DNA of 64,000 nucleotides from Streptosporangium nondiastaticum (GTDB lineage: Bacteria; Actinomycetota; Actinomycetes; Streptomycetales; Streptomycetaceae), in NCBI RefSeq assembly GCF_003011965.1, contig NZ_PXWG01000001.1, positions 62,001 to 126,000 on the forward strand, given 5' to 3'. The notes under the pieces are model-generated. The model worked only from the letters and a program-made list of their open reading frames with translations. It ran no database searches and was not told the DNA's origin. The position numbers and the translations under genes were made by a program. Numbering within the stretch: the stretch's first letter is position 1; the number at the start of each line of letters is the position of its first letter. Shown piece after piece: positions 30,493 to 54,506 of the stretch.

Positions 30493-30514
30493 GACGCTTC
30501 CTTTCGTGAGGGTT

Positions 30515-32949: not shown

Positions 32950-32986
32950 CCGAGCCGCCCGTTCCCCAAGGAGAAGGAGACCCGCT

Positions 32987-37464: not shown

Positions 37465-39750
37465 TCAGCCGTCCCCGTGGGCCTCAGCCCGCTCATCAGC
37501 CGTGCACCGAGTGCCCCGCACTGCCCGCACCTCCCGCGCCCCCGGCAGCCACCAGTTCGCCCGGCCCGCCAGAGTCATCAGGCCGGGGACCAGAGCCCCC
37601 CGCACCACTACCGCGTCCACCAGGACGGCCAGAGCCAATCCGACCCCGGTCAGTTTGAGCGGGGTGACCTGAGAGGTCGCGGGGCCGGCCATGGCGGTGG
37701 CGAAGACGAGGGACGCTGCCGTGACCAGCCGGCCCGTACGCCTCATTCCCGCGACGACGGCCGAAGTGTTGTCGCCTGAGGCGAGGTACTCCTCCTTGAT
37801 GCGGGCGACGATGAAGACCTCGTAGTCCACGGACAGGGCGTAGGCGGTCGCCAGCAGGAAGACCGTGCTCGTGTCGATCAGGTACCCGGGGGCGTGGAAG
37901 TCACCGAGGACACCCCGCAGGTGCCCGTCCTGGAACACGTGCACGAGACAGCCCAGTGTTGCCGCCAGGCTTGCCGCAGCCACCGCCACGGCCTTGAACG
38001 GCACCAGCAAGCTGCGGGTGAACAGCGCCATGAGCACGAACGTCGCGGCCGCAATGAGACCGAAGCACCAGGGCAGGGCACGCCGGATGGCCGACTGGGC
38101 GTCCACCGCCTCGGCTGCTTCCCCGGCTACGAGGACATGACCGTGGGCAGGAAGAGTGCGTAGCTGCTTCACCAGCGCCGCCGATTCCGCCGTGCCGGCG
38201 GGGAAACGTGAGGTGACGGTCAGCAACGGGCCGCCCGGTGAGTCCTCGTGCGCGTCCGACGGGCCCGGCGCCCCGGTCTTCGCGCCGCCGCGGTACTGAC
38301 CTGTGAAGGTGCGGACGGCTGCTGTCTGGCGGAGTGCCGAGACGGTGCGGGCGTAGCCGTCGACGTCCTCACGCGGTGTCCCTTTCGGGAGTCCGACGAT
38401 CAGTCCGCGTTCCGGTGCCGAGGCGAAGTCCTGACGGATCGCCACTCCGGCCGTACGGGTCTTGCTGTGCTGCGGGAGGTCGTCCACGGCGGACGGGCCG
38501 AGGGCGACGTGCCATGCGGGAAGGGACATCACGGCCAGCACGCAGGTGGCGACGAGCGCTGCCACGGCGGGCCGCCGGGTGACGGCCAGGGTCGCCCGCC
38601 GCACGCCCGGGCTTCCCTCGGGGCCGGAAGCGCCGGAGCTGCGGAGGCGTGCGAACAGGTCCAGCCGGTCGATGCGGTGTCCGAGGAGGGCCAGCAGGGC
38701 CGGGATCACGATGACGGAAGCGGCTGCGGAGAAGACCACCACGGCGATGGCGGCCCAGGCGGCCGAGCGCAGGAAGACGAAGGGGAAGAGCAGCAAGGCG
38801 GAGAGGGAGGCCAGCACGATGCTCGCCGAGACGACGACCGCACGGCCCGCGGTGCGGACACTTCGGGCGATGGCCTCCTGCAGGGGTGCCCCTGCCATGG
38901 ATTCCTCGCGGAAGCGAGCGACCATCAGGATGCCGTAGTCGACCGCCAGGCCGAGTCCCAGAGCGGTGGCGATGTTCGAGGCGTAGACCGAGACCTCGGT
39001 GAGGGAGGACAGCAGCCGCAGGAAGGCCAGGGTCCCGGCCGTGGAGACCAGTGCACTGACGACCGGCAGCAGCGCCGCGACGAGGGAACGGAAGACGAAA
39101 AGGAGGATGAGGGCACACGCCGGCGCGGAGATGAGTTCCGCCCTGAGCAGGTCGGCGCGGTTGTCGTCCAGGAATTCGGCACGGGTCCAGGCCGCTCCGG
39201 TGGGCGTGATCGTCACTGGCCCGCGGTGTGCGCCGAGGGCGGTGACCAGCCGTTGGGCGGTCTTGGCCCGGAACGCCTCGTCTCCGGTCAGCTCGGCGGT
39301 GACCAGTGCCGCGTGCGTGTCCCGGGAGAGCAGAGCGGAATCGCTCGTGCTCCAGTACGAGGCGACCGTCCCGACGCCCGGCGCGCGCCGGATGTCGCTC
39401 TCCACCGTGCGGCCCGCCGCCGTGACTTCTGGTGTGCGTACGTCTGATGCGGCGCGCAGGAGCAGGACCAGGTCCGGGGCGGAGGAGCCGTAGCGTTTCG
39501 CGAGCGTGGTGCTGTCCCGGGTGGCGGGGGCTCCTGAGGGGACCGCGCCGGTGATGCTGAGCCGGTCCAGGCCACCTGTGCCGAACAGGCCCAGGGCCAC
39601 GGTGCCGAGGACGCATGCGGCCAGGGTCAGGCGAGCGCTGTGCCAGGGCCGCCAGCGGGTGACGGCTCGGAGGAGACGCAGGCGGCCCCGGGCCGGACGA
39701 GGACCGCCCCGGGCCGCCGCGTCGCCGTGAAAGCTGTGCCGACGGTGCAC
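37465..39750 (-). CDS. MMPL/RND-family membrane transporter (candidate steroid exporter)
   Basis: 761 residues. Topology is typical: one N-terminal helix, a large extracytoplasmic loop (~residues 60-200), a block of five to six helices containing the family signature GLAVDYGILMVARFREE, a second loop (~410-520), and a second block with LSVDYEVFIVARIKEEYLA. GTG start with GAGGAGGA upstream. It is the last gene of the minus-strand steroid operon, 16 nt after the squalene-epoxidase-like gene. RND-superfamily proteins include hopanoid (HpnN), mycolate (MmpL) and bacterial sterol transporters, so export or trafficking of the steroid product is a reasonable inference. Confidence 0.85.
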   Translation of the reverse strand: MHRRHSFHGDAAARGGPRPARGRLRLLRAVTRWRPWHSARLTLAACVLGTVALGLFGTGGLDRLSITGAVPSGAPATRDSTTLAKRYGSSAPDLVLLLRAASDVRTPEVTAAGRTVESDIRRAPGVGTVASYWSTSDSALLSRDTHAALVTAELTGDEAFRAKTAQRLVTALGAHRGPVTITPTGAAWTRAEFLDDNRADLLRAELISAPACALILLFVFRSLVAALLPVVSALVSTAGTLAFLRLLSSLTEVSVYASNIATALGLGLAVDYGILMVARFREESMAGAPLQEAIARSVRTAGRAVVVSASIVLASLSALLLFPFVFLRSAAWAAIAVVVFSAAASVIVIPALLALLGHRIDRLDLFARLRSSGASGPEGSPGVRRATLAVTRRPAVAALVATCVLAVMSLPAWHVALGPSAVDDLPQHSKTRTAGVAIRQDFASAPERGLIVGLPKGTPREDVDGYARTVSALRQTAAVRTFTGQYRGGAKTGAPGPSDAHEDSPGGPLLTVTSRFPAGTAESAALVKQLRTLPAHGHVLVAGEAAEAVDAQSAIRRALPWCFGLIAAATFVLMALFTRSLLVPFKAVAVAAASLAATLGCLVHVFQDGHLRGVLGDFHAPGYLIDTSTVFLLATAYALSVDYEVFIVARIKEEYLASGDNTSAVVAGMRRTGRLVTAASLVFATAMAGPATSQVTPLKLTGVGLALAVLVDAVVVRGALVPGLMTLAGRANWWLPGAREVRAVRGTRCTADERAEAHGDG

Positions 39751-39766
39751 GGGCGCATCCTCCTCT

Positions 39767-41086
39767 TCACCAGCCCCAGCTGTGTCCCGGGGGACGGCTC
39801 ATCCACCGCAGCCAGCTGAGGTAGTCCCCGCACGCACATACGGACGTGCGCCATGTCGTGCGGCACCGGCCTGCCACCAGTTGATCGCGCACGGCGTGAC
39901 CGGCCACGTGCAGGACGGCGCCCGCCAAGGGGAGGAGGCCGAGTTCTTCCGCGCACAGCAGCCGCATCATGCGTTCGCGTTCGCTGCCGCTGGCGCGCAG
40001 GACCGCGTACATGCTGCGGCGCAGGTCCCTGGTGGGCCGGCCCGGGTCGCAGAAGATGCGGTGCATGGCGGCGGCGAGGTGTTCGTGGGCCCGCACCGCC
40101 GCCCGGCGGCGCCGGCCGTGGGCGGCGACGTCCTCGGTGCGGGCGAGGCATTCGGCGTCGCGCAGGCCGATGGTCAGTCCGGAGGCGGTCAGCGGGTGGC
40201 ACGTGCCGACCGCGTCACCGACCAGGGCGTAGGGCCCGCGGCCGTGGAAGGCGCGCAACCGGATCCGGTTGGCCGCCCACTGCACCGCCCTCTGCTCCAG
40301 GGCCGCGCACAGGGGCCCGGACAGCGAGGCGGGAAGGAACCGTGCGTAGCCGCGCTGGACGTAGGACGGCAGGTCCGGGGAACGCCGCGATGACAAGGGA
40401 ACGTCGATGGTGACCCGGATGGTGTCGTCGTCCAGCCGGTAGGCCAGTACGGGGCCGGGGCCGCCCGCGAAGACGTGACCGTATCCCTCTGCGGGGAGGG
40501 TGAGGCCGCGCAGCAGTACGCCGGCCGTGCGGGAGACGGTCGTCGCCGGGGCGGTGGTCGTCGCCGGGGTGGTTGTCGCCGGGGCGCCGGAGTGGATCGC
40601 GCGTCGCACCAGGGAGGCCTGCCCGTCGCTGCCGACGATGCGCCCGGCCCGTACGTGCTGTTCGGGACCTCCTTCCCGCGTGTAGACGACCGTGGTGTGC
40701 CGGATGGAGGTGACGCGCGCCCCCAGCGTGAGGGTGATGGCGGGGTGATCCGCAGCGACCGCCCGCAGAGCGGCGACCAGTTCGCAGTGGCGTACGGTGG
40801 CGGCCCGCCCGCCGCGCGGGCAGGCCAGCGTGATCGGCGGACTGCGGTCCTCGGGGTGCAGGACGAAGCCCAGAGCCGGGCGGGAGAGGGGCGCGGGCAT
40901 GCCGACTCCGAGCCTGTGCAGCACCGCGATTCCGCCGGGGTGGATCCACTCCCCGGCCAGCCGGGTGGGCGGCCGGCGCGAGGCCTCCAGGAGCAGGACG
41001 CGCCGGCCGGCGCGGGCGTGGGCGAGCGCGGTGGCGCAGCCGGCCGGGCCCGCACCGATGACGGCGACGTCGCAGGGCGCGGTCAT
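39767..41086 (-). CDS. Squalene epoxidase-like FAD monooxygenase
   Basis: 439 residues. FAD-binding GAGPAG (residues 11-16) opens the protein; LAGEWIHPGGIAVLHRLGVG matches the squalene epoxidase segment (V)GELLQPGG. The second FAD motif is VGDAVGTCHPLTASGLTIGL (Gly290-Asp291), the counterpart of LGDAxNMRHPLTGGGMTVAL in eukaryotic enzymes. A Thr/Ala/Pro repeat (ATTTPATTTAPATT) is inserted near residue 170. Expected reaction: squalene + O2 to 2,3-oxidosqualene using FAD and a reductase partner. It starts 6 nt after the P450 stop, in one operon with the cyclase. Confidence 0.8.
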   Translation of the reverse strand: MTAPCDVAVIGAGPAGCATALAHARAGRRVLLLEASRRPPTRLAGEWIHPGGIAVLHRLGVGMPAPLSRPALGFVLHPEDRSPPITLACPRGGRAATVRHCELVAALRAVAADHPAITLTLGARVTSIRHTTVVYTREGGPEQHVRAGRIVGSDGQASLVRRAIHSGAPATTTPATTTAPATTVSRTAGVLLRGLTLPAEGYGHVFAGGPGPVLAYRLDDDTIRVTIDVPLSSRRSPDLPSYVQRGYARFLPASLSGPLCAALEQRAVQWAANRIRLRAFHGRGPYALVGDAVGTCHPLTASGLTIGLRDAECLARTEDVAAHGRRRRAAVRAHEHLAAAMHRIFCDPGRPTRDLRRSMYAVLRASGSERERMMRLLCAEELGLLPLAGAVLHVAGHAVRDQLVAGRCRTTWRTSVCACGDYLSWLRWMSRPPGHSWGW

Positions 41087-41092
41087 CGGGGT

Positions 41093-42460
41093 TCATCGAT
41101 TCCTGCGGCGGTAGCGCACCGTGCACGGCCGGCGGGGCTTGTGCCGCATGGCGGTGACGGCTCCGCGAGCCCGGGCCTCGGCGAGTTCGAGGTCGAAGGC
41201 GCGCAGGAGGACGCTCCAGATGATCTTCATCGTCTGCTGGGCGAAGGACATGCCCAGGCAGGGGTGCCGGCCTCCGCTGAAACCGATCAGGGCGTAGGGC
41301 GTGGCGCGGTGTTCCCTGCGGTCCGGAAGGTATCGGTCGGGATCAAACGTGCCGGGCTCGCGGAAGACGCCGGGCAGGCGGTGTGATGCTCCCGGCGAGA
41401 CACACACCAAATGGCCGCGTGGTACACGGTAGCCGTGGATGCACAGGTCGCGTGCGGCGGTGCGGGCGAGCAGCCAGACGGCCGGGTGCAGGCGTTCTGC
41501 TTCCAGGAGGCAGTGGTCCAGGCGCTCGAGTTTGTGGAGTGCGGAGAGGGTGGCCGGCGGGTGGTCGGTGAAGGCGGCTTCCTGTTCCGCGCGCAGGACG
41601 GGGAGCCACTGGGGGTATTGGAGCAGGAGGATTCCCGTCCAGGCGGCGTGGATCGGGGTGGAGGCCGCGGCGAAGAGCCAGCCGAGCATGAGGGAGGCTG
41701 CGGTGTTCTCGTCCAGGGAACGGCCATCCGGTCCCACCGCGCACATGAGGTCTTCGAAATGGCTGTGTTCGCTGCCTTCGGGGCAGTCGTGGGGAGCGAT
41801 CTGTTTGATGGCCCGGGTGAGGGTCTCGCGAGCGCGGTCGGCTCGGCGGTGCTGGGGCAGGAGGGCTCGGGAGCCGGTCATGAAGGTCGCGAAGGCGGCG
41901 GACTCCAGCTGGTTGAGCAGCGTGGGAAGGGCCGGTCCGACCGTACGGGCGAAGCGTGGTCCGATCAGGCAGTGGGCGGTGATGCGCGCGGTCAGGTCAC
42001 GCATGACCGTCATGAGTTCGAAGGTGCCGCTCGCCTGCCACGGGGTGATGTACCGCTCGACCTGGTCGAACATGGCCTGGGCATGCCGGGCCAGGGCATC
42101 TCGTCGGATAAGGGGCAGCAGCAGGGAGTCGTGCCAGGCTTTGACGTCGGCGGGGACGTTGAAGACCACTCCCGGGCCCAGTAGGGGAGTCACGAGCGGT
42201 TCGTAGACGGGGCGGCGGTCCGCTTCGGAGTCGTCCAGGCCCAGGACCACGGCATTGGCCTGAGGCCCGCAGAACGACGCCACCCGTCGGCCGGGAAGCG
42301 AGAAGGCCACGGCTTCGCCCCGCCTGCTGTGCGCACGCAACAGAAAATCCACGGGGTTCCGGACGAAGGGGATCGCGTGACCGATCAGCGGCAGCCCTCC
42401 CTCGACAGCGGGGAGTTCCCGTCCTCCGGGCGGGGACGTGTTCCGGGTTCGGTCGGTCAT
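41093..42460 (-). CDS. CYP51-like cytochrome P450 (diverged)
   Basis: 455 residues. The N-terminal GLPLIGHAIPFVRNPVDFLL and LLGPGVVFNVPADVKAWHDS follow the sterol 14-demethylase pattern; the haem loop is FSGGRHPCLGMSFAQQ (Cys401), the ExxR is EAERL, and the end (PCTVRYRRR) is CYP51-like. The I-helix stretch that reads AGQHTS in CYP51 is FAAASTP here, so the conserved His/Thr pair is altered. The ATG overlaps the cyclase stop (ATGA). It probably oxidises a cyclised triterpene, perhaps at a position other than C14. Confidence 0.8.
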   Translation of the reverse strand: MTDRTRNTSPPGGRELPAVEGGLPLIGHAIPFVRNPVDFLLRAHSRRGEAVAFSLPGRRVASFCGPQANAVVLGLDDSEADRRPVYEPLVTPLLGPGVVFNVPADVKAWHDSLLLPLIRRDALARHAQAMFDQVERYITPWQASGTFELMTVMRDLTARITAHCLIGPRFARTVGPALPTLLNQLESAAFATFMTGSRALLPQHRRADRARETLTRAIKQIAPHDCPEGSEHSHFEDLMCAVGPDGRSLDENTAASLMLGWLFAAASTPIHAAWTGILLLQYPQWLPVLRAEQEAAFTDHPPATLSALHKLERLDHCLLEAERLHPAVWLLARTAARDLCIHGYRVPRGHLVCVSPGASHRLPGVFREPGTFDPDRYLPDRREHRATPYALIGFSGGRHPCLGMSFAQQTMKIIWSVLLRAFDLELAEARARGAVTAMRHKPRRPCTVRYRRRNR

Positions 42461-44610
42461 GGTGTCCCCTCGGGTCCTTCGGGCGCGATCCGTTCGGTGG
42501 GGGTGGCGGGGGCTGATGGAGCGACGGCCCGTAGGTAGTGGCCCACGGCCATGGCCGGGAAGTACACCGGGTAGAGGTGGTAGACGAGCATCATCGTGGT
42601 GAAGAAGACGCCGTTGACGTGGCCACCGGCCCAGGAGCCGTCCGCCTGCTGGTGGGTGCACAGCCAGCGGACGCCGTTCTCGACGGCGGGGTGCCGGGGC
42701 CCGAGCGTGTCCAGCCCGGCCAGGACCGCCCAGGCGGTCATCTCGGGCAGACTTCTGTCCAGGGCGAGGTAACGGTGTTCGAGGCAACTGCGCCAGTCCT
42801 CTCCCCAGCCGCCGTCCTTGAGCTGGGTCTCCCGCAGCCAGCGGCCCAGTGCGATCAGCGCGGGGTCGTGGGCCGGGACCCCCGCGGCGCGCAGTCCACG
42901 GGCGGCGTGGAAGGCGGCGTAGGTGTAGTTGATGCCCCACGTTCCGCTGAAGGACCCGTCGTGGTGCTGGGACGCGCGGATGTAGGTGACGCCTCGCGCG
43001 ACGGCCTTTCCGGCGCGGCGGCGCGGGGCCGGGGCCATCAGGGGCAGCATCCGGCCCAGGGCCGTGAGGACGGAGCCGGTGCATTCGACGGAGGACGCGT
43101 CGACCATGCACCCGGCGAACATCTCCGTCGGGTTGAGCGCCTCCAGCCAGTCGCCGGCACGCCGGCGGTCGAGGGTGCCGAACCCGCCGTCGCGGTTCTG
43201 CCGGTCCAGCATGACCTCCATCGCGCCGTGCAGAGCCCGCCGGTCGAGGTGAGCGTGCGCCGGAACCCGGTGGCTCCCCCCGAGGCCGGTCGCCTCCTGC
43301 GCGCGCACCAGGGCGCCCACGGCTTCGGCCGTGCAGTCGCTGACGGGCCAGCGGCTGTGACCGTCGGAGAACGCCCAGCCGTGGCGGACGGTGCGCAGGG
43401 GCGGCACATGCCCGGTGTACGTGGTGATCTGTGCACCGCGCAGGAAGGCGTGCGCCCGGTCGACGGCCGGGGCCAGCCGGGGGGCCGGTTCCTGCTCCTC
43501 GTACGCGGCGTCTCCCGACAGGAGCGCTTCCACAGCGAAGGAGGTGTCCCACACGATGGACCGGTCCCCGCAGACGCGCAGGCCGCGCTCATCGTCCTCC
43601 CAGCACCAGTAGCGCAGGCGGGCGACGGCGTCCTCCAGCAACGGGTGGTGCCGGTCCCGGGCGAACAGCACCAGGCACTCCACCAGCGCGTTCACCGAGG
43701 ACAGGCCGTGGTGCGGCGAGGCGTGCTGCTCGTCGACGACCGCGCGATGGCAGCGCTCCAGCGCGGCGCGGCGCAGGCGCCGGCTGTGCACCCGCTCCCA
43801 GGCGCGCAGGGTCCTTTGCAGGACGCGCAGGGCGCGGCCGCCGGTGACGTACACGTCGGTGCTGTGAACGGGTGGGGAGCCATCGCCCGAGCCGGCACCA
43901 GTTCCCGAGTCGGCCCCGGCCCCTGAGCCGGTTCCCGATTCCGGGGCGGTACGGGCTCCCGAGCCGGGGCCGGGAAACAGCTCACGGCGGATGTCGCGGG
44001 TGACAGGGCCCGGGTCCGCGCGGAACTTCACCCCGTACAGGTAGGCCATGGCCTGGTAGAGCATCCGCGTCCAGCCCAGCAGCCGTTCGGGGTGCAAGGG
44101 CGCCCACCTGGGAAGAAGCATCACCTCAGGGGGAACCGGCGCCACCTGCCGGTAGGGCACCAGGCCCAGGATCGCGAGCCAGAAGAACCCCCATTGCGGA
44201 ACGGCTCGGACACCGCCCGGCTGTGCGTGGATCCACTGCCGCGCGCCGGCGGCGAGGGGGTCATGCGGACCGGTGCCGAGCAGGCGCAGGGCCACGTAGG
44301 CCAGCGTCGTGGCGTAGGCCGACGGCGGTGCCTGCGGGTGCATGCCCCAGCATCCCCCGGCCGTACGGGTCGCCCGGAAGCACTGGAGGATCGCCTGCCG
44401 GGTCGGCTCGTCCGGGGGACGTTCCAGGATGTGCAGGACGATGACGTACTGGGAGAGGATCATGGTGCTCCACTCCATCTCGCCCTCCCACGCACCGCTT
44501 TCGTGCTGGAGGCCGAGCAGATGCGCGCAGGCGGCCTCATAGGCGCGGTGCGCGCCGGGCACCGGCGCGAAGGCCGTGGAGTCACCGGTGGCGGTGCGGG
44601 GTGTCGCCAC
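42457..44610 (-). CDS. Oxidosqualene cyclase (triterpene cyclase, OSC type)
   Basis: 717 residues. The initiating-acid motif is PVSDCTAEA (Asp425), the form used by oxidosqualene cyclases, not the DxDD of squalene-hopene cyclases. QW-type repeats are frequent (DGGFGT, DGSFSGTWGINYTYA, DGGWGEDWRS, DGSWAGG) and LNPTEMF, VECTGSV and GVFF match OSC landmarks. Aligned on these, human LSS His232, Tyr503 and Thr381 correspond to Trp180, Leu480 and Gly348, so the product may differ from lanosterol. A ~35-residue Gly/Ser-rich insert lies near residue 215-250. GTG start with AGGAGGA upstream. First gene of the operon. Confidence 0.88.
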   Translation of the reverse strand: MATPRTATGDSTAFAPVPGAHRAYEAACAHLLGLQHESGAWEGEMEWSTMILSQYVIVLHILERPPDEPTRQAILQCFRATRTAGGCWGMHPQAPPSAYATTLAYVALRLLGTGPHDPLAAGARQWIHAQPGGVRAVPQWGFFWLAILGLVPYRQVAPVPPEVMLLPRWAPLHPERLLGWTRMLYQAMAYLYGVKFRADPGPVTRDIRRELFPGPGSGARTAPESGTGSGAGADSGTGAGSGDGSPPVHSTDVYVTGGRALRVLQRTLRAWERVHSRRLRRAALERCHRAVVDEQHASPHHGLSSVNALVECLVLFARDRHHPLLEDAVARLRYWCWEDDERGLRVCGDRSIVWDTSFAVEALLSGDAAYEEQEPAPRLAPAVDRAHAFLRGAQITTYTGHVPPLRTVRHGWAFSDGHSRWPVSDCTAEAVGALVRAQEATGLGGSHRVPAHAHLDRRALHGAMEVMLDRQNRDGGFGTLDRRRAGDWLEALNPTEMFAGCMVDASSVECTGSVLTALGRMLPLMAPAPRRRAGKAVARGVTYIRASQHHDGSFSGTWGINYTYAAFHAARGLRAAGVPAHDPALIALGRWLRETQLKDGGWGEDWRSCLEHRYLALDRSLPEMTAWAVLAGLDTLGPRHPAVENGVRWLCTHQQADGSWAGGHVNGVFFTTMMLVYHLYPVYFPAMAVGHYLRAVAPSAPATPTERIAPEGPEGTP

Positions 44611-44965
44611 GTGCCGTCCTCCTGTGTCGGTCTGCCGGTCGAGGAAAGGGGCGATGGCCTCAGTGCGAAAGGGGGAGCGCGGGCGAACACGGAGGATTCT
44701 TCCTTCGGCTTCTGATCGATATGCCGTACCAGTGCATCGAGGTCAGAACCCTCCATAAAACCGAAGTCGTATCGTCGGACAATAGGACTCGTTATATAGA
44801 GAGGTGCGGGCGAATTCGCACGCCCTTTCCGAGTACCCGTGCGACCCTCGGCACGAGGTTTTGAGTCGACGGGCCGGGAAGCCTTCTGTGGATCCCCATG
44901 CGGCGGCGATCGCCGTATTGATGTTGTGGCGCGAACGGCTTTGACGGCGGTAGGGGAGGAGGGCC
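44611..44965. promoter_or_regulatory. Divergent promoter region of the steroid cluster
   Basis: 355 bp separate the divergent cyclase and SDR-CYP51 genes. A patch at about 44755-44805 (cataaaaccgaag, aataggactcgttatatagag) is unusually AT-rich for this genome and is the likely site of both promoters. A short inverted repeat GTGCG...CGCAC follows at about 44803-44820. On the minus strand an ATG at about 44758 opens MEGSDLDALVRHIDQKPKEE, which could be a leader but runs into the cyclase frame region and is not called as a gene. Confidence 0.5.
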
Positions 44966-47557
44966 GTGATTCTGGTGACCGGCGCAAGCGGCCATCTCGG
45001 CGCGAACCTGGTGCGGCGTCTGCTGGCCGACGGCCAGGACGTCCGGGCCCTGGTGCGGCCCGGATCGCCTGCCGGGGCACTGGCCGGACTCGCCGTCCAC
45101 CGGACGGCCGGGGACCTGCGGGATCCGGCAGCGGTCGCGGCCGCCGTCGAAGGCTGTGAGAGCGTCTATCACTGCGCGGCGCGCGTTTCGACGGCGGCTC
45201 GCGGACACCGCGAGATCCATGCGGTCAACGTGCTGGGCACGCGCAACGTGCTGGAAGCCGCGCGGCAGCACGGCGTGGGCCGGGTCGTGGTGACCGGGTC
45301 GTTCAGCGCGACGGGCCAGGCTCCGGGACGGGCCGGTACGGAGCGCGACCTGCACTACCCCTTCGGGCCCCACACCCCGTACACGCGCAGCAAGGTGCTG
45401 GTCGAGCACGAGTGCTGCAAGGCCGCGGCCCAGGGCCTGGAGGTGGTGGTCGCGGTGTCGACGGCGATCATCGGCCCGCACGACTACGTGCCGTCCCGGA
45501 TGGGGCGTGTGCTGCTCGACTTCGCGCACGGACGGCTGCTTGCCTACATCCCCGGCGGCTTCGAGTTCGTCTCCGTCCAGGATCTCGTCCAGGGCCACCT
45601 GCTGGCGATGGCGCGCGGCCTGCCGGGGCACAAGTACTTGCTGTCCACCGAGTTCTGCACGGTCGACCGGATGATGGACCTCTACGCACAGGTCACCGGG
45701 CGCCCCAAGCCGCGCCTGCGGATGCCCGCACCGGCCATGGAGACGCTCGCCCGCCTCGCCGAAGGACCGCGGTCGGTGCTGACGCCGCACCGGGAGGCGC
45801 GCTTCACTCCGGCGGCCGTTCGCTTCCTGCGCTCCGAGCGGCGGGCCGACTGCACCCTCAGCCGCGAGGTCCTGGGCTACCGCCCCACCAGCATTGCCAC
45901 CGCCGTCGAGCAGGCCTACCGCTGCTTCGCGGACCGCGGCCTGGTGGAACGGCGCGGGGTGGCGAGTCCCGCGCCCCGCCCCACCGGGCGGCGCGGGCGG
46001 GAAGCGGAGCCGGAGCCGGAGGGGGCCGCGATGGCGACCGAACCGACCGAAGCGACCGAAGCGACCGAAGGCATTGAGGCAGGCGTTGAGGCAGGCGTTG
46101 AGACGGGCGTTGAGACGGGCGTTGAGACGGGCGTTGAGACGGGCGTTGAGACGGGCAACAGGAAGGCCATCACCGCACCCCGCCTGCCGGCCCGCCACCT
46201 GCCGTGGCTGGGCCCGCTGCCGGCGTTCCACCGCGACCCGGTCGCCATGCTGCGCGCCGCACGGGAACGGGTCGGCGACACCTTCGCCTTTCCCCTGCTG
46301 GGCCAGGAAGTCGTCTTCGCCTGCGGACCCGGGGCGCATGCCGAGGTGTTCGAAGCGGACGAGGCGATCCTCAGTCAGCGCGAGGCGTATCGCTTCATGG
46401 CTCCGGTCTTCGGCCCCGGCATCGGCTTCGACGCCGCCACCCCGGAAGATATGGACGCACAGATCGCCCCCATGCGGTCCGCACTCGGCTCCCGGAACCT
46501 CGACGCATACGTCCGTACCATGGAGGCGGAGGTACGGGCCCGGACGGCGCACTGGTCGACGCAGGGCGAGATCGACCTGCTCGCCGAACTCAACCGGATG
46601 ACCGCGGCCATCGCCACGCGCTGTCTCATTGGCGAGGAGTTCCACCGCCGCATGGGCCCGGAACTGCCCCGGCTCTACCGAGAACTGGAAAGCGGCATCC
46701 GGCTCGCGGGCATGCTCAGCCCCAAGGCACCGATCCCCGCCTTCCGGCGCCGCGACCGGGCCCGCGCAGCCATCGCCGAGGCCATCGGCCAGGTCATCGC
46801 AGAACGCCGCAGGCGGCCTCCGGGAGACGAAACCGCCGTCCCTCCCGGCTCTTCTGCCGGTGCCACCGGCGGACAGGACATGCTCGCCGTGCTGCTCGCC
46901 GCCCGCACCCCGGACGGCGACCCGATGCCCGACCACATCGTGACCGGCATCCTGATCGGCATGATCGTCGCAGGCCAGCACACCAGCGCGGTACTCGCCA
47001 CATGGACCGGCGTGCTGCTCATGCGCCACCCCGACTACGTACCGCTGCTGCGCGCCGAGCAGGAGGAGACGTGGGCTCCCGGCAGCTCGCTCGGCACCCG
47101 GACCCTGCGTCGCATGGAGCTCCTGGACAATTGTGTGCGCGAGGCCGAACGCCTGCACCCACCGCTGATCCTGCTGATGCGCAAGGCGCTGAGCGACACC
47201 ACGATCCGCGGCCACCACGTGCCGGCCGGCTCGCTGGTCATGATCTCCCCCGCAGTGGCGCACCGCATGCCCGAGGTGTTCGCCCATCCCGATCGCTTCG
47301 ACCCCTCCCGGTACGGCACCGGGCGCGCCGAGCACCGCCGCCCCTACGCCCTCATCGGCTTCGGCGGGGGCAAGCACCGCTGCATCGGAGTCGCCTTCGC
47401 CTACCTGCAGGTCAAGACGGTGTGGAGCGTCCTGCTGCGCGAGGCGGACTTCCGGCCCACCCGGTCCGCCTACCCGCCGGACTACTCGACCTTCGTCCCC
47501 GCGCCGGCCGCCCCCTGCACCGTCCGCTACCGCAAGCGCTCCACCACGTCGTCGTGA
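44966..47557 (+). CDS. Fused 3-beta-HSD/C4-decarboxylase-like SDR and CYP51
   Basis: 863 residues in one uninterrupted frame. Residues 1-~335 are an extended SDR: TGASGHLGANL binds NAD(P), and Tyr139-x3-Lys143 (YTRSK) is catalytic; relatives are 3-beta-hydroxysteroid dehydrogenase/C4-decarboxylases (NSDHL, bacterial SdmB). Residues ~336-405 are a linker with Val-Glu-Thr-Gly repeats. Residues ~406-863 are CYP51: FGPGIGFDA, AGQHTS (669-674), and FGGGKHRCIG (Cys806). GGGGAGGAGG precedes the GTG. It would couple C14-demethylation with C3 oxidation/C4 decarboxylation. An internal ATG in the linker (about 46031) preceded by GGAGGGGG might also give free CYP51. Confidence 0.85.
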   Translation: MILVTGASGHLGANLVRRLLADGQDVRALVRPGSPAGALAGLAVHRTAGDLRDPAAVAAAVEGCESVYHCAARVSTAARGHREIHAVNVLGTRNVLEAARQHGVGRVVVTGSFSATGQAPGRAGTERDLHYPFGPHTPYTRSKVLVEHECCKAAAQGLEVVVAVSTAIIGPHDYVPSRMGRVLLDFAHGRLLAYIPGGFEFVSVQDLVQGHLLAMARGLPGHKYLLSTEFCTVDRMMDLYAQVTGRPKPRLRMPAPAMETLARLAEGPRSVLTPHREARFTPAAVRFLRSERRADCTLSREVLGYRPTSIATAVEQAYRCFADRGLVERRGVASPAPRPTGRRGREAEPEPEGAAMATEPTEATEATEGIEAGVEAGVETGVETGVETGVETGVETGNRKAITAPRLPARHLPWLGPLPAFHRDPVAMLRAARERVGDTFAFPLLGQEVVFACGPGAHAEVFEADEAILSQREAYRFMAPVFGPGIGFDAATPEDMDAQIAPMRSALGSRNLDAYVRTMEAEVRARTAHWSTQGEIDLLAELNRMTAAIATRCLIGEEFHRRMGPELPRLYRELESGIRLAGMLSPKAPIPAFRRRDRARAAIAEAIGQVIAERRRRPPGDETAVPPGSSAGATGGQDMLAVLLAARTPDGDPMPDHIVTGILIGMIVAGQHTSAVLATWTGVLLMRHPDYVPLLRAEQEETWAPGSSLGTRTLRRMELLDNCVREAERLHPPLILLMRKALSDTTIRGHHVPAGSLVMISPAVAHRMPEVFAHPDRFDPSRYGTGRAEHRRPYALIGFGGGKHRCIGVAFAYLQVKTVWSVLLREADFRPTRSAYPPDYSTFVPAPAAPCTVRYRKRSTTSS
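46071..46157. repeat. 12-bp tandem repeat (gttgagacgggc) in the SDR-CYP51 linker
   Basis: Seven in-frame copies, the first two slightly diverged (gttgaggcaggc), encode the Val-Glu-Thr/Ala-Gly linker. A preceding gcgaccgaa repeat encodes Ala-Thr-Glu. Confidence 0.9.
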
Positions 47558-47586
47558 ACGGCGACCCCCGGCGTGCACGGCCTGCG

Positions 47587-47652
47587 CGCCCGATCCCGCC
47601 CCGCCCGATCCCGTCCGGCCAGATCTCGCCCCGCCCGATCCCGTCCCGCCCC
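47587..47652. repeat. 15-bp-type tandem repeat (ccgcccgatcccgtc)
   Basis: About four copies between the SDR-CYP51 stop and the Rieske ATG. The stretch is open in the Rieske frame from a GTG at 47554 that overlaps the CYP51 stop (GTGA), so it could be a 50-residue Arg/Pro/Ile N-terminal extension rather than a spacer. Confidence 0.75.
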
Positions 47653-47703
47653 CCGGCATTCGCCGAGGCCCGCGGCAAGCGCACCCGGGCGCGGGCAGCC
47701 GGC

Positions 47704-48756
47704 ATGGATCCCGACTACTGGTACGCCGTCGCTTACGAGAGCGAACTGCCGCGCGGGGCGACCCTGGCCACCCGCTTCTGGGGCCACCCCCTCGTGGTCT
47801 ACCGCGGTACGGACGGCAGCCTGCACGCCCTGGAGGACCGCTGCGCGCACAGGCAGCTGAAACTCTCCGGCGGCGAGGTCAACGGCTGCCATCTGACCTG
47901 CACTTATCACGGCTGGACCTACGACGGTGGCGGCAACGTCGTGCACTACGCGCACGACCTGTTCGGCCGCGCCCGGCCCGAGGTCAAGGTGCCCGGCTAT
48001 CCGGTGACCACCCGGCACGGCCTGATCTGGGTCTTCCCCGGTGACCCGGCCCTGGCCGCCGAGCGGACCATCCCGGCCATCCCGGAGCTCTCGGGGAGCA
48101 GGCCGTGGGCCCGGCTCGACGCTTCGTTCACCTGGCAGGCCCACCACTCGATGATCATCGACAACGTCAGCGACTTCACCCACAGCTATCTGCACCGCCG
48201 CTTCCGCCCCTTCTGGGACGCCAAGCTCACCCGCCACGAGCTGACCGAGGACCGGGTTGAGCTCGCGTACGAGACGTTCGTGGGCGGCGGACGCCTCACC
48301 TCCCGCTTCGTCGACCGACGCCGGGTGGACACCACCTCCATCGAGCTGGTCTTCGACTATCCGTACCAGTGCTCCGACACCGGGGGATCGATCAAGCACT
48401 GGTGCTTCGTGCTGCCGATGGACCGGCGCACCAGCCGTGTGTTCTTCATCTTCTACTTCGACGCGGTGAAGATCCCCGGCACCCGGTGGACGCTGCCCCG
48501 CGTACTGCTGCAGCCCTTCATGCGCATGGCCGGCGCACTCGTCGTCAAGCCATTGCTGTGCGAGGACGGCGAGGCTGTGGAGGCGGAACAACTCGGCTAC
48601 GAAACCCATTTCACCGCCCCGATCGTCGAACTCAACCCCGCCGTCGGCCTCTTCCAGGACCTCACCATCCGCAAATGGGAGGAATTCCTTGACCGTGACC
48701 GATCCCGTCCCCGCCCCTCAAGCATTGCCGCCGCGGACGGACGCATCGTCCCCTAG
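47704..48756 (+). CDS. Rieske non-haem iron oxygenase (sterol C4-demethylase or C7-desaturase candidate)
   Basis: 350 residues. The Rieske [2Fe-2S] ligands are Cys47/His49 (RCAHRQLKL) and Cys66/His69 (CTYHGW). The mononuclear iron site is in IIDNVSDFTHSYLH (His160, His164, with Asp153/Asp157 as bridge). The opening DPDYWYAVAYESELP matches the usual N-terminus, which favours ATG 47704 over the overlapping GTG at 47554. In bacterial sterol makers a Rieske oxygenase (SdmA) with an NSDHL-like SDR removes C4 methyl groups, while related enzymes desaturate C7; the neighbouring SDR favours C4 chemistry. The electron-donating reductase is not in the cluster. Confidence 0.82.
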   Translation: MDPDYWYAVAYESELPRGATLATRFWGHPLVVYRGTDGSLHALEDRCAHRQLKLSGGEVNGCHLTCTYHGWTYDGGGNVVHYAHDLFGRARPEVKVPGYPVTTRHGLIWVFPGDPALAAERTIPAIPELSGSRPWARLDASFTWQAHHSMIIDNVSDFTHSYLHRRFRPFWDAKLTRHELTEDRVELAYETFVGGGRLTSRFVDRRRVDTTSIELVFDYPYQCSDTGGSIKHWCFVLPMDRRTSRVFFIFYFDAVKIPGTRWTLPRVLLQPFMRMAGALVVKPLLCEDGEAVEAEQLGYETHFTAPIVELNPAVGLFQDLTIRKWEEFLDRDRSRPRPSSIAAADGRIVP

Positions 48757-48784
48757 TCCCGTTCTTTCCGCGATCGCTGATATC

Positions 48785-48862
<78 letters not shown>

Positions 48863-48921
48863 TCGCAAACCCTGCACTGCGCCGTTGAGCTGTGCGGCGC
48901 TCACGACCGGAAAGCACGCCC

Positions 48922-50469
48922 ATGAGCCAGGCGTCCACCCCGCACTTGAGCCAGACCTCCGTCCCCCGTTCCGCCCAGTGGCTGGCCGATCACCGCTGGC
49001 TGTACGTGATTCCCGTCCTGCTGCCTCTGTCCAAGGCATACGCCGTGGCCGGGGCGCTGTCCTCCCGGCTGCTCCGTCGCCGGACGGGCGAACTGCGGCG
49101 CCACCGGCGCCGGGTGGCCCGCATGCAGGCACGTGTGCGGGAGCGTGCACGGCGCGGCGAGGGAGGGCTGATCAGCACCGCCCGTCCGCAGTGGCGGTCG
49201 ATGTCGCCGTCGCGCACCACGTCCTACAAGGACGGAGCCTTCCTGGTGCCGGCGAAGCTGGACGGCATTCTCCAGGTGGACACGGAGCGCCGAACCGTAA
49301 CGGTCGGGCCGGCGGTCACCATGGGACGGCTGACAGCCGCACTGCCGCGGGGCTGGACCCTGCCGGTCGTGCCGGAGCTGGAGGACCTCACCGTCGGCGG
49401 CCTCATCATGGGCTACGGCATCGAGACGTCCTCCCACCGCTACGGCCTGTTCGCGGACAACGTCGAATCCTGCGAGGTCCTCCTGGCCGACGGCGAGGTG
49501 GTGGTCGCGGACCGCACCCACCGCACGGACCTCTTCCACGCCCTGCCCTGGAGCCGCGGAACCCTGGGACTGCTGACCTCCGTACAACTGCGGATGGTCC
49601 CCGCCCATCCGTGGGTCCGCCTCTCCTACCACCGGCTCGGCAGCGCGGCCGCACTCACCGAGTGCATCGCCTCGTACTCTGCCGGCCCCCACCCGCCCGA
49701 CTTCGTGGAGGGCTTCCACTTCTCACCGACGGAAGGCGTCGTGGTCACCGGCACGCTCGTCGACCGCCCGCACGCCCGCGACGGCGTGGTCAACCAGATG
49801 GGACGCTGGTACAAGCCCTGGTTCCACGAGCACGCCCGGACACAGTGCCGGCTGCGGCGCAACACCGAGTACGTGCCGCTGCGGGACTTCTACTTCCGCC
49901 ACAGCCGCAGTATCTACTGGGCGGCGGAAATGCTCGCCCCGAGCACCAACCACCCCCTGTTCCGGTACACCCTGGGGTGGCTCATGCCGCCCAAGATCGC
50001 CTTCCTCAAGCGCTCCGAGACACCGGGGATCCGCCGGCTGTACCTGCAGGCCACGGCCACGCAGGAGGCCCTCGTCCCCGTACGCGCACTGCCGGAGGCG
50101 ATCGAGAAGTGCCGCGAGGCGTTCCACGTGGACCGCATGTGGCTGTGCCCAGTGACACTGCGCCGCTCCGAGCCGGGAGGCATGGTGAGCCCCGGCACCC
50201 CGGACGGCCTCTACATCGACATCGCCGTCGTCTTCGAGACGCCGGAACCGGTCAGGCGCGGCCTGCCCTGGGACGCCCGGCAAGCCACCAGGACGTTCGA
50301 GGCCTGGCTGCTGGACAACGGCGGCTTCCAAGTCCCCTACGTCGCCACGCACATGACGCGCGAGGAGTTCTGGTCCATGTTCGACGGTCGGCCCTACTTC
50401 GCCGCGCGCAAGAAGTACGGGGCGGAAGGCTCGTTCCTCGACATCTACGACAAGGCCGGCTGCAACTGA
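48922..50469 (+). CDS. Delta24-sterol reductase (DHCR24/DWF1-like FAD oxidoreductase)
   Basis: 515 residues, nearly the length of human DHCR24 (516). An N-terminal hydrophobic segment (WLYVIPVLLPLSKAYAVAG) may anchor it to the membrane. The FAD-linked PCMH domain follows (VGPAVTMGRLTAALP, LTVGGLIMGYGIETSSHRYG). The second half tracks DHCR24 closely: FYFRHSRSIYWAAEML, NHPLFRYTLGWLMPPKIAFL, MWLCPVTL and GLYIDIAV. It would reduce the sterol side chain at C24(25), or at C24(28) after methylation as plant DWF1 does. Confidence 0.88.
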   Translation: MSQASTPHLSQTSVPRSAQWLADHRWLYVIPVLLPLSKAYAVAGALSSRLLRRRTGELRRHRRRVARMQARVRERARRGEGGLISTARPQWRSMSPSRTTSYKDGAFLVPAKLDGILQVDTERRTVTVGPAVTMGRLTAALPRGWTLPVVPELEDLTVGGLIMGYGIETSSHRYGLFADNVESCEVLLADGEVVVADRTHRTDLFHALPWSRGTLGLLTSVQLRMVPAHPWVRLSYHRLGSAAALTECIASYSAGPHPPDFVEGFHFSPTEGVVVTGTLVDRPHARDGVVNQMGRWYKPWFHEHARTQCRLRRNTEYVPLRDFYFRHSRSIYWAAEMLAPSTNHPLFRYTLGWLMPPKIAFLKRSETPGIRRLYLQATATQEALVPVRALPEAIEKCREAFHVDRMWLCPVTLRRSEPGGMVSPGTPDGLYIDIAVVFETPEPVRRGLPWDARQATRTFEAWLLDNGGFQVPYVATHMTREEFWSMFDGRPYFAARKKYGAEGSFLDIYDKAGCN

Positions 50470-50527
50470 CCCGCTGTTCCCAGTGTCCCAACTGTCCCAC
50501 CAGAACAGGAGACGAGGAGAAGCCCGG

Positions 50528-51427
50528 ATGACCGAAACGACAGAAGTGGCGCTCGAACGCTACCGGCAACTGGCAGCGGGAAACGACTCCGCGCGCAGCG
50601 GACACTACCGCGACCTCGTGACCTCCTACTACGACCTGGTCACCGACCTGTACCTGGAAGGCTGGGGCCCGTCCCACCACTTCGCCCCCCTCAAGCCCGG
50701 CGACTCCCACGTGGACGCCCTGGCCGCACGCCAGGAATTCCTCGCCGGCCGTGCAGGCCTGTGCCCCGGCATGAAGGTCCTCGACGTGGGCAGCGGGGTC
50801 GGCGGCCCCGCGCTCAACATCGCCGGCATCTCCGGCGCCCACGTAACGGGACTCGACCTCACGCCGGTGCGCGTTGATCACGCCCGTCGGCGCGCCCGCG
50901 ACCTCGGACTGCAGGAGCGGACCACGTTCGTCGACGGCGACGCCATGGACATGCCCTTCGAAGACGCCTCGTTCGACGTCGTCTACGCCTTCGAAGCCAT
51001 CTGCCACACCGCCGACAAGGGCCGCACCCACGCCGAGATCGCCCGGGTCCTCAAACCCGGCGGCCTGTCGATCGGCTACGAATGGCTCGCCGCCGACGGA
51101 CTGCCCACCGCGGCTCTCGACCACCTCATCGAACCGATCTGCCGCTACTACGCCCTGCCCCACCTCGCCACACCCGGCCGGCTCACCCGACAACTGCAGC
51201 ACGCCGGCTTCACCGACATCGTCGTGGGCGACGCCGAGGCCACGGGCGACCTCGCGGCCACCTGGGACTACCTGGACGAGCTGGCCGACCTCGGCGAACA
51301 GTTCGACGACTCCCCGGTCAGGAAGTTCATGGTCGAAGGCGCCCGCGCCCTGACGCGGGCGGCCCGGGAGGGCGCCTTCCTCATCGACTTCTGGGAGGCC
51401 CGCAAACCGGGAACGCCCTCCGAGTGA
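50528..51427 (+). CDS. Sterol 24-C-methyltransferase (ERG6/SMT-like)
   Basis: 299 residues. The sterol-methyltransferase signature YYDLVTDLYLEGWGPSHHFA (near residues 38-57) is almost identical in pattern to ERG6 (YYxxVTDFYEYGWGxSFHF). The SAM motif is VLDVGSGVGGPAL, and YAFEAICHTADKG with VLKPGGLSIGYEW match ERG6 regions III-IV. The C-terminus (FLIDFWEARKPG) matches the ERG6 end, so the protein is complete though shorter. GAGGAGAAG precedes the ATG. It would add a methyl to C24 of a side chain with a C24 double bond, before or instead of DHCR24 reduction. Last gene of the plus-strand operon. Confidence 0.88.
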   Translation: MTETTEVALERYRQLAAGNDSARSGHYRDLVTSYYDLVTDLYLEGWGPSHHFAPLKPGDSHVDALAARQEFLAGRAGLCPGMKVLDVGSGVGGPALNIAGISGAHVTGLDLTPVRVDHARRRARDLGLQERTTFVDGDAMDMPFEDASFDVVYAFEAICHTADKGRTHAEIARVLKPGGLSIGYEWLAADGLPTAALDHLIEPICRYYALPHLATPGRLTRQLQHAGFTDIVVGDAEATGDLAATWDYLDELADLGEQFDDSPVRKFMVEGARALTRAAREGAFLIDFWEARKPGTPSE

Positions 51428-53929: not shown

Positions 53930-54025
53930 GACGACGGGCAGGAACTGATCGCCGGACTCGACAGCCTCCTGAGCCGGATGCTCGAGACACCTCTTGACTC
54001 GTTCTACGGCAGGAGCGCACGCTGA
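53930..54025 (+). pseudogene. C-terminal gene fragment
   Basis: The plus strand reads DDGQELIAGLDSLLSRMLET and PLDSFYGRSAR to a TGA. It resembles the last helix of a longer protein, with nothing coherent upstream. Confidence 0.25.
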
Positions 54026-54036
54026 GAATACGAGGT

Positions 54037-54059
54037 GTACACATCCGATGTATGTGTAC
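54037..54059. promoter_or_regulatory. Inverted repeat upstream of the carboxypeptidase operon
   Basis: GTACACAT and ATGTGTAC (8-bp perfect arms, 7-base spacer) in an AT-richer patch 123 bp before the first ATG. Likely operator or promoter element. Confidence 0.45.
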
Positions 54060-54181
54060 ATGCCGCGCATGCATGCGCCGAGGGCTACACGCTCACCCGT
54101 CCACTCGCCGCGAGCGCGCCGTCCCCGGCCGGGTCGGCACGGCCGATCTCCGAGTCCGACGGCGCCCGAGAGGGGCCCGTC

Positions 54182-54496
54182 ATGTCCAGCGAGTACACCA
54201 TTCTGCGTGTCCGCGTCACGGCCAAGGATGCCGACACCCTGCGCGCCCTGCTGCGCGACTCCCGCCCCGACGTCGGAGGCCAGATCCGTCAGAACGAAGA
54301 CGGCAGCTTCACCTTCGACGCCTACGTGTCCCCCGAGCAGGGCGAAGCCCTGACCCGCGAGGGTGTGTCGGCCGAGGTCATCGAGGACGCCACCGCCACC
54401 GGACGTGCCCGCCAGGCCGAGGTGGGCGAAGGAGACCGGTTCGCCCCCGAGGACGCGGTTCCGCAGGGACTCGCCCTCAAGGTGCAGGGCAGCTAG
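54182..54496 (+). CDS. Small partner protein of the M14 carboxypeptidase
   Basis: 104 residues, acidic, no signal peptide. Opening YTILRVRVTAKDADTLRALL and the strand pattern GGQIRQNEDGSFTFDAYVSP recall small ferredoxin-like folds such as peptidase propeptides/inhibitors. It ends 10 nt before the carboxypeptidase gene in one operon. A role as intracellular inhibitor, chaperone or recruitment subunit of the peptidase is an inference from the fold-like pattern and linkage. Confidence 0.65.
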   Translation: MSSEYTILRVRVTAKDADTLRALLRDSRPDVGGQIRQNEDGSFTFDAYVSPEQGEALTREGVSAEVIEDATATGRARQAEVGEGDRFAPEDAVPQGLALKVQGS

Positions 54497-54506
54497 GAGG
54501 GACGCC

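What the first reader, a model, noticed from the sequence alone, without database searches (positions are those of the whole stretch)
37465..51427. A divergent two-operon steroid biosynthesis cluster in an apparent streptomycete
Seen in sequence: an oxidosqualene cyclase (PVSDCTAEA), a squalene epoxidase-like flavoprotein (GDAxxxxHPLT), two CYP51-type P450s, an NSDHL-like SDR, a Rieske oxygenase, a DHCR24/DWF1-like reductase, an ERG6-like methyltransferase and an MMPL transporter, in two tightly coupled divergent operons. Established: sterol synthesis in bacteria is rare and known mainly from Methylococcus, Gemmata and some myxobacteria. Inference: this is a dedicated pathway making a tailored, probably C24-alkylated, steroid-like triterpenoid, and may be undescribed for this group.
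Basis: partly seen in the sequence, partly recalled or inferred. Interest (0 to 1): 0.96.

Follow-up and report, generated by a model that had tools for sequence, protein, structure and literature searches.

The report
Streptomyces sterol cluster with rewired cyclase
A Streptomyces bacterium carries a compact gene cluster that is predicted to make and probably export its own sterol-like lipid, and its ring-forming enzyme has replaced residues that its relatives outside one small Streptomyces group almost always keep, so the product is likely to be unusual.

Summary
At 37465-51427 two divergent operons encode an oxidosqualene cyclase (OSC), a squalene-epoxidase homologue, a canonical CYP51, a degenerate CYP51 paralogue, SdmA and SdmB homologues (bacterial C-4 demethylation), a Delta24-sterol reductase, a short SMT-like methyltransferase and an MMPL pump. 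The cyclase groups with OSCs, not squalene-hopene cyclases. (1) Streptomyces mashuensis carries the same cluster plus C-14 reductase (ERG24-type) and EBP-type isomerase genes; two further genomes of the genus carry an ancestral-looking version. No convincing copy of either gene was found in the window's genome. (2) The OSC keeps its catalytic machinery but belongs to a 17-sequence clade that replaced His232 (mostly by Trp), Tyr503 (Leu) and residue 449 (mostly Ser); the other 103 of the 120 listed best hits have His, Tyr and His there. So it is an OSC in a sterol pathway, but plain lanosterol is uncertain. Sterol genes in actinobacteria have been mentioned in print (PMC10202945, PMC12004948); ten full-text searches of one open library gave no description of this cluster, its pocket change or its P450 paralogue. 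No chemistry is shown. Verdict: real; new variant of a known kind.

The parts
37465..39750 (-). MMPL/RND-family membrane pump, likely exporter of the product
   Evidence: PF03176 201 bits; also in the clusters of S. mashuensis (70.7% identity) and G187 (66.6%). Its match to the sterol transporter model BstA is far below cut-off (35 of 1400 bits).
39767..41086 (-). squalene-epoxidase-like FAD monooxygenase (SQE)
   Evidence: PF08491 59.6 bits, cut-off 20.1; best PDB hit human squalene monooxygenase 6c6n, E 6.5e-18; the only PF08491 match found in the genome.
41093..42460 (-). P450A, degenerate CYP51 paralogue: heme Cys kept, GQHTS I-helix motif and FG/YD of the B-C signature lost
   Evidence: Best PDB hits CYP51; motif alignment; ATGA overlap with the OSC stop inferred from the translation.
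42457..44610 (-). oxidosqualene cyclase (OSC) with DCTAE and Cys533 kept, His232->Trp, Tyr503->Leu, 449 Ser (human numbering)
   Evidence: TIGR01787 406.6 bits, cut-off 322.7; human lanosterol synthase E 1.1e-95; tree; residues; model.
44611..44965 (.). divergent intergenic region between the two operons
   Evidence: no sigma-70-type promoter match, two terminator-like hairpins on the + strand.
44966..46031 (+). SdmB-like SDR part of a fused open frame
   Evidence: NF052578 SdmB 309 bits, E 5e-92, below its 600-bit cut-off.
46032..47557 (+). P450B, canonical CYP51 (14alpha-demethylase), in frame with SdmB; internal ATG at 46032 preceded by GGAGG
   Evidence: PDB CYP51 E 4.8e-92; AGQHTS and YRFMAPVFGPGIGFD kept; sequence of the junction; separate gene in S. 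mashuensis.
47560..48756 (+). SdmA-like Rieske oxygenase (C-4 demethylation)
   Evidence: NF052579 364.8 bits, E 4.1e-109, below its 600-bit cut-off; PF00355 + PF19112.
48922..50469 (+). DHCR24/DWF1-type Delta24-sterol reductase (open frame from 48892)
   Evidence: (named Delta(24)-sterol reductases among the hits), tree.
50528..51427 (+). short SMT-like C-methyltransferase without PF08498 (open frame from 50483)

Best explanation
This is a sterol-type biosynthesis and predicted export cluster in Streptomyces whose oxidosqualene cyclase keeps the catalytic residues of lanosterol synthase but has changed residues expected to steer the product, so it likely makes a tailored sterol that differs from plain lanosterol derivatives. 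Shown: the genes, their families, the same cluster in S. mashuensis, the residue changes, and that searches found no ERG24-type gene and no convincing EBP-type gene in this genome. Inferred order of steps: squalene (probably from two squalene/phytoene-synthase-family genes near the genome's hopene cyclase gene) is epoxidised by SQE; the OSC folds it to a 4,4,14-trimethyl tetracyclic alcohol; CYP51 (P450B) removes the 14alpha-methyl; SdmA with SdmB removes one or both C-4 methyls; the short SMT adds carbon at C-24 and the DHCR24/DWF1-type enzyme saturates the side chain; the CYP51 paralogue P450A adds an oxidation elsewhere; MMPL moves the product to or across the membrane. Without ERG24 and EBP the ring double bonds would stay where the OSC and CYP51 leave them, unless another enzyme acts.
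For: OSC identity. Sterol tailoring genes in the cluster: P450B with CYP51 signatures, SdmA/SdmB homologues, Delta24-reductase, SMT positions GWGxSxHF, C-H and YEW, SQE. Syntenic relatives supply more of a textbook pathway: S. mashuensis has two PF01222 ERG4/ERG24 genes and an EBP gene; G187 and G143 have ERG24, EBP, CYP51, SdmA, SdmB, SQE, SMT, OSC and MMPL together. Squalene source: two PF00494 genes at C331:168281-169995 near an SHC. Constraint: dN/dS 0.22-0.54 for nine gene pairs, no stops. Pocket change: residue 232 is Trp in 15 of 16 and Arg in 1 of 16 of P0001-P0016, residue 503 Leu in 16 of 16; of the other 104 of the 120 listed hits, 103 have His232/Tyr503/His449 and the exception, P0017, groups with this clade. 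Of 9 further OSCs outside the clade, 8 have His232/Tyr503 and one (plasmid, YIM 121038) Tyr232/Tyr503. The ERG24 query rings in 3 of 3 cluster-bearing relatives and not in this genome.
Against: No product, transcript or enzyme assay. The altered dyad could mean a non-lanostane, incompletely cyclised or weakly active cyclase; Val453 would instead predict ordinary lanosterol by the published rule. Streptomyces with the same cyclase clade but only OSC+SQE (L006) or OSC alone with more pocket changes (L007) show that the OSC is not always tied to a sterol pathway. NCBIfam cut-offs for SdmA, SdmB and TIGR03463 are not reached, though the H/Y-type G187 proteins miss them too. SMT activity is not proven; P450A's role is a guess. 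Loss of ERG24/EBP could be early decay: S. klenkii L014 holds mostly broken pieces of the cluster. The EBP search gave one 38-residue stretch at E 0.0046 and had no whole-genome positive control.
Confidence: 0.68

Rival explanations
1. The cyclase makes ordinary lanosterol despite the replaced dyad, and the cluster makes an ordinary C-24-alkylated bacterial sterol; the pocket change is tolerated drift.
For: Val453, the residue that tracked lanosterol versus cycloartenol in tested bacteria (PMC4919349, passage read), is Val here. A canonical CYP51 and, in S. mashuensis, ERG24 and EBP genes accompany the same cyclase type, which fits a lanostane-type substrate.
Against: Joint change at 232, 449, 503, 381 and 700 on a long stem branch of 0.64 changes per column, where 103 of the 104 other listed hits agree at 232, 449, 503 and 381.
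Confidence: 0.3
2. The OSC makes a non-sterol triterpene skeleton (protostane, dammarane, isomalabaricane or similar) and the cluster is a secondary-metabolite pathway that reuses sterol tailoring enzymes.
For: Dyad loss. Tyr510 mutants of the fungal lanosterol synthase Erg7 (the residue equivalent to human Tyr503, equivalence recalled) make an isomalabaricane trienol beside lanosterol (PMC8228503, passage read). P450A has lost CYP51 motifs. A minimal OSC-SMT-P450A-SQE cluster with no CYP51 in the fetched 22 kb exists (L005).
Against: P450B is a canonical CYP51, and 14alpha-demethylation does not suit a protostane skeleton (established chemistry, recalled). S. mashuensis keeps ERG24 and EBP next to the same cyclase type.
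Confidence: 0.2
3. The cluster is a decaying relic: transferred sterol genes that no longer make a product here.
For: ERG24 not found, EBP only as one doubtful 38-residue stretch; broken pieces in S. klenkii L014; an OSC in only 4 of 199 sampled genomes of the genus at E<=1e-100; SdmB and CYP51 frames run together.
Against: All window genes open; dN/dS 0.22-0.54 against S. mashuensis; catalytic residues kept in the OSC and heme Cys in both P450s.
Confidence: 0.12
4. The cyclase is a squalene-hopene cyclase and the cluster belongs to hopanoid metabolism.
For: VIA-align Z for SHC 2sqc (41.2) is tied with human OSC 1w6k (41.3).
Against: OSC DCTAE motif, model TIGR01787 over its cut-off while the hopene cyclase model is below its own, OSC rows separate from SHC-like rows at 99 support, Foldseek E 6e-41 for OSC against 1e-31 for SHC, and a separate SHC with DDTA elsewhere in the genome.
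Confidence: 0.02

Closest known systems
Bacterial sterol pathways of Methylococcus capsulatus, Enhygromyxa salina and Calothrix sp. NIES-4105 (PMC10202945; sections 8 and 10 read)
   Same: OSC, C-14 demethylation and SdmA/SdmB-based C-4 demethylation; a single gene cluster in Calothrix.
   Different: In Streptomyces, with an OSC pocket change, a second degenerate CYP51, an MMPL pump, and no ERG24 or convincing EBP gene found in this genome; no chemistry known.
H/Y-type clusters of two genomes of the same genus (G187 = L033, G143 = L034; found here)
   Same: SQE, SdmB, CYP51, SdmA, OSC, SMT, MMPL homologues in one locus.
   Different: They keep His232/Tyr503, ERG24 and EBP, and no P450A showed in the 20 kb fetched for each.
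Streptomyces mashuensis cluster (L004)
   Same: All nine functions, same divergent layout, W/L-type OSC.
   Different: Adds two PF01222 reductases, EBP and an amine-oxidase-like gene; SdmB and CYP51 are separate genes.
Sterol methyltransferase gene clusters of uncultured bacteria (PMC10070321; section 7 read)
   Same: SMT beside OSC and sdmA/sdmB homologues; most of the tested SMTs alkylated the side chain in vitro.
   Different: The SMT here is about 300 aa and lacks PF08498; that paper's tree used the methyltransferase and C-terminal domains.
Gromomycins, triterpene antibiotics of Streptomyces and Actinoplanes (PMC13010261; part 1 of 7 of the text and passages read)
   Same: Bacterial triterpenes from actinomycetes with Rieske and, in some, P450 genes.
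   Different: Pentacyclic, squalene-independent, made from hexaprenylguanidine by groD/groH/groF; the present cluster has SQE and an OSC instead.

Membership tests
Oxidosqualene cyclase | DCTAE motif with catalytic Asp455 and Cys456/Cys533 (human numbering) | tested here: met
Oxidosqualene cyclase | score over curated cut-off of squalene/oxidosqualene cyclase model TIGR01787 | tested here: met
   406.6 bits, cut-off 322.7
Oxidosqualene cyclase | score over cut-off of 2,3-oxidosqualene cyclase model TIGR03463 | tested here: not met
   645 of 851 bits; the H/Y-type G187 OSC also misses it, 754
Oxidosqualene cyclase | groups with OSCs and not SHCs in a tree | tested here: met
   (OSC/SHC split 99)
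Lanosterol synthase | His232-Tyr503 dyad | tested here: not met
   Trp and Leu
Lanosterol synthase | Val453 rather than Ile453 | tested here: met
   rule from PMC4919349 passage
Lanosterol synthase | makes lanosterol from oxidosqualene | not testable with these tools
   needs expression and GC-MS
CYP51 (P450B) | B-C signature and GQHTS I-helix motif (recalled signatures) | tested here: met
   PDB CYP51 E 4.8e-92
CYP51 (P450A) | B-C signature and GQHTS I-helix motif (recalled signatures) | tested here: not met
   YEPLVTPLLGPGVVFN and AAAST; the nearest solved family is still CYP51
SdmA / SdmB | score over NCBIfam equivalog cut-offs NF052579 / NF052578 | tested here: not met
   364.8 and 309.1 of 600 bits, but the best family match for each; G187 homologues score about the same, 371.9 and 309.7
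Squalene epoxidase | PF08491 over cut-off and nearest solved structure a squalene monooxygenase | tested here: met
Delta24-sterol reductase (DHCR24/DWF1) | falls among named Delta24-sterol reductases | tested here: met
   the tree holds no outside family
Sterol C-24 methyltransferase | GWG-S-HF, ExxCH and YEW positions shared with fungal SMTs | tested here: met
Sterol C-24 methyltransferase | C-terminal domain PF08498 | tested here: not met
BstA sterol transporter (MMPL gene) | score over NF045600 cut-off | tested here: not met
   35 of 1400 bits

The most novel reading that the evidence does not exclude
A Streptomyces lineage turned an ancestral sterol pathway into a secreted-steroid pathway: it replaced the His232-Tyr503 dyad of its oxidosqualene cyclase by Trp-Leu, duplicated and retuned CYP51, dropped the C-14 reductase and the Delta8-Delta7 isomerase, and makes a steroid skeleton or double-bond pattern not known from any bacterium.
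Probability: 0.35. Interest if true: 0.85.

Novelty: new variant of a known kind. Interest (0 to 1): 0.62.

Why it matters
Streptomyces are major antibiotic producers, and the listed searches gave no report of one shown to make its own sterol with these genes (an old report of cholesterol in a Streptomyces is recalled and was not checked). A working pathway would extend de novo sterol making to cultivable, genetically tractable bacteria, bear on the use of steranes as eukaryote markers, and give a natural test of what the His232-Tyr503 dyad does: an OSC clade in which nature changed it, next to a sister clade in which it is intact.

Tried and rejected
Hopanoid reading rejected (separate SHC; OSC models and tree). 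Gromomycin-type pathway rejected (PMC13010261; no prenyl-synthase-type family among the cluster's Pfam hits). Plasmid origin: tblastn against 72,556 plasmid records found no close copy (50 records with a match, all under 60% identity); the best was a Streptomyces plasmid OSC at 43.6%. Promoter scan of the divergent gap: no sigma-70-type site. Printed reports: ten full-text searches in one open library listed no description of this cluster; supplementary files could not be read, so the actinobacterial species behind the statement in PMC10202945 are unknown to me and may include these. A PF01222 family search of the own genome was uninformative because its controls also stayed silent; protein queries were empty too, and with positive genomes replaced them. 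The EBP query gave one 38-residue stretch at E 0.0046, 53% identity, which I take as chance; its whole-genome search had no positive control, but the same query by tblastn rings in L004, L033 and L034 and not in the window.

Rows dropped or wrong: the row called OWN_SHC is a wrong open frame, so its SHC column means nothing (residue registration was checked by eye). In one search the row OSC_L008 is a wrongly chosen frame with a very long branch and is to be ignored; L010-L013 were not found by that script and entered only. The OSC tree used 56 of the 120 listed hits (of 965 found). The SMT tree used 41 of 120 listed hits (of 2304) with one very distant outgroup, so its root is unsure. The DHCR24 tree used 36 of 120 listed hits (of 273), and its chosen outgroup did not hold together. 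In one search only 5 first-look candidates per genome were scored, so its 4 of 199 may be an undercount; the G143 match there showed one TAG, though one search finds an open 689-aa frame.
Full report
What is there. Two divergent operons separated by 355 bp (44611-44965). Minus strand: OSC 42457-44610, P450A 41093-42460 (ATGA overlap with the OSC stop, inferred), SQE-like 39767-41086, MMPL 37465-39750. Plus strand: SdmB-like SDR and P450B in one open frame 44966-47557, SdmA-like Rieske 47560-48756, DHCR24-like 48922-50469, SMT-like 50528-51427. The genome has 8.03 Mb in 431 contigs. It shares its genus code with G035, whose contig length (393,530) equals that of the S. mashuensis record NZ_BNBD01000007.1, so I place it in Streptomyces by inference; the same code covers G187 and G143.

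The cyclase is an OSC. It matches human lanosterol synthase at E 1.1e-95 and passes the squalene/oxidosqualene cyclase model (406.6 bits, cut-off 322.7) while staying below the hopene cyclase cut-off (245.5 of 431.1); it misses the cut-off of the OSC model TIGR03463 (645 of 851), as the H/Y-type G187 OSC does (754). In a tree it sits with bacterial OSCs, split from five Streptomyces SHC-like rows at 99. Its AlphaFold2 model (pLDDT 86.4, pTM 0.88) matches human OSC best (Foldseek E 6e-41 against 1e-31 for SHC); by VIA-align Z the human OSC (41.3, 634 residues) and an SHC (41.2, 601 residues) are tied. A separate SHC with the DDTA motif is at C331, with two squalene/phytoene-synthase-family genes 3-5 kb away, the likely squalene source; whether these are HpnC and HpnD was not tested.

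The pocket is not that of an ordinary lanosterol synthase. In an alignment with human LSS (residues taken), the 16 best hits, the window's own included, keep Asp455, Cys456 and Cys533. At 232 they have Trp (15) or Arg (1), at 503 Leu (16), at 449 Ser (15) or Cys (1), at 381 Asp (15) or Glu (1). Of the other 104 among the 120 listed hits, 103 have His232, Tyr503, His449 and Ala381; the one exception, P0017, shares the altered pocket (and has Thr at 456) and groups with the 16. The clade of 17 has full support, a stem of 0.64 changes per column, and as sister group (96) the H/Y-type Streptomyces cyclases P0042, P0080 and P0105. Outside the list, G187, G143 and L008-L013 have His232/Tyr503 (8 of 9 further OSCs outside the clade) and the ninth, the plasmid OSC of Streptomyces sp. 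YIM 121038, has Tyr232/Tyr503; inside it, L005 and L006 have Trp/Leu and L007 Arg/Leu. The role of the dyad in steering the late cations is recalled from yeast ERG7 work; a passage of PMC8228503 confirms that Tyr510 mutants make another triterpene besides lanosterol. Val453 would predict lanosterol by the rule of PMC4919349 (passage). So the product is open.

The tailoring genes speak for a sterol. P450B has the CYP51 signatures, like the CYP51s of G187 and G143; P450A and its two relatives in S. mashuensis and L005 lack the GQHTS motif. SdmA and SdmB homologues are the best family matches (E 4.1e-109 and 5e-92) although below the equivalog cut-offs, as are the G187 homologues. The SQE's nearest solved structure is human squalene monooxygenase. 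The reductase falls among Delta24-sterol reductases of bacteria, animals, an oomycete and a plant, in a six-sequence clade that also has a long stem (0.68). The methyltransferase shares the SMT motif positions with fungal and bacterial SMTs but belongs to a set without PF08498 (that grouping has support 86 and an unsure root); its nearest solved structures are other methyltransferases such as MitM, not SMTs.

Relatives complete the picture. S. mashuensis (L004) has the same cluster with SdmB and CYP51 as separate genes, an EBP-type gene between DHCR24 and SMT, one ERG24-type gene between SQE and MMPL, and a second one plus an amine-oxidase-like gene beyond SMT. G187 and G143 carry H/Y-type OSC with SQE, SdmB, CYP51, SdmA, EBP, ERG24, SMT and MMPL; several G143 genes lie in pieces. 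In the stretches fetched, L005 has OSC-SMT-P450A-SQE only, L006 OSC-SQE, L007 OSC alone. I infer that the ancestral Streptomyces set had ERG24 and EBP, that the W/L lineage changed the OSC and gained P450A, and that the window's line then lost ERG24 and EBP. The ERG24 query rings in 3 of 3 relatives and not here; the EBP query gave one 38-residue stretch at E 0.0046, without a whole-genome positive control, and does not ring in the window.

Rarity and constraint. An OSC at E<=1e-100 is in 4 of 199 sampled genomes of the genus, own genome included, two of each type; only 5 candidates per genome were scored there, so this may be an undercount. Among 61 relatives, own genome included, it is in 2, both of this genus. 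Against S. mashuensis the nine gene pairs have dN/dS 0.22 (SdmB) to 0.54 (P450A) and no stops; this is a simple count in a very GC-rich genome and only indicates constraint.

What is known. PMC10202945 (sections 8 and 10 read) reports the genes for C-14 and C-4 demethylation in actinobacteria, naming no actinobacterial species in those sections, and PMC12004948 (passages) makes a similar remark. PMC13277303 (section 7 and passages) mentions Streptomyces CYP51 sequences in a tree. PMC10070321 (section 7) tested bacterial SMTs; its main text does not contain the word Streptomyces. None of the passages read describes the W/L pocket or P450A. Hence a new variant of a known kind. Whether it makes any product, and which, is untested.

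Noticed in passing
window 44966-47557: SdmB and CYP51 share one open frame, joined by a degenerate 12-bp repeat linker (GVET), with an internal ATG at 46032 behind GGAGG; in S. mashuensis they are two genes with an ATGA overlap. Fusion protein, read-through or assembly slip cannot be told apart here.
   Followed up: partly
window, about 48786-48850: A GTCGTG-type hexanucleotide repeat fills part of the gap between the SdmA and DHCR24 genes.
   Followed up: no
L014 (Streptomyces klenkii): Only pieces of the cluster remain around the OSC start: an SMT end, the OSC start, part of SQE, and a whole MMPL, next to each other without Ns; a deletion or a misassembly.
   Followed up: partly
L024 14016-18051 (plasmid pSSP121038, Streptomyces sp. 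YIM 121038): OSC (Tyr232/Tyr503), squalene/phytoene synthase and a squalene-epoxidase-like gene side by side on a 968-kb linear plasmid, near Tn3 transposases and recombinases.
   Followed up: partly
NZ_LR882940.1 (Planktothrix agardhii plasmid), 53990-55930: A squalene/oxidosqualene-cyclase-like gene (35% to the window's OSC) on a 62-kb cyanobacterial plasmid record.
   Followed up: no
window 24949-34369: A small neighbouring set: BTAD-type regulator, HTH-NACHT protein, ketosynthase, methyltransferase and two condensation-domain-like proteins (one below the Pfam cut-off); may be a separate biosynthetic cluster.
   Followed up: no
L004 1758-3158 and L034 6823-8181: A flavin amine-oxidase-like gene (56% identical between the two) travels with two of the sterol clusters; role unknown.
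   Followed up: no
   Followed up: no
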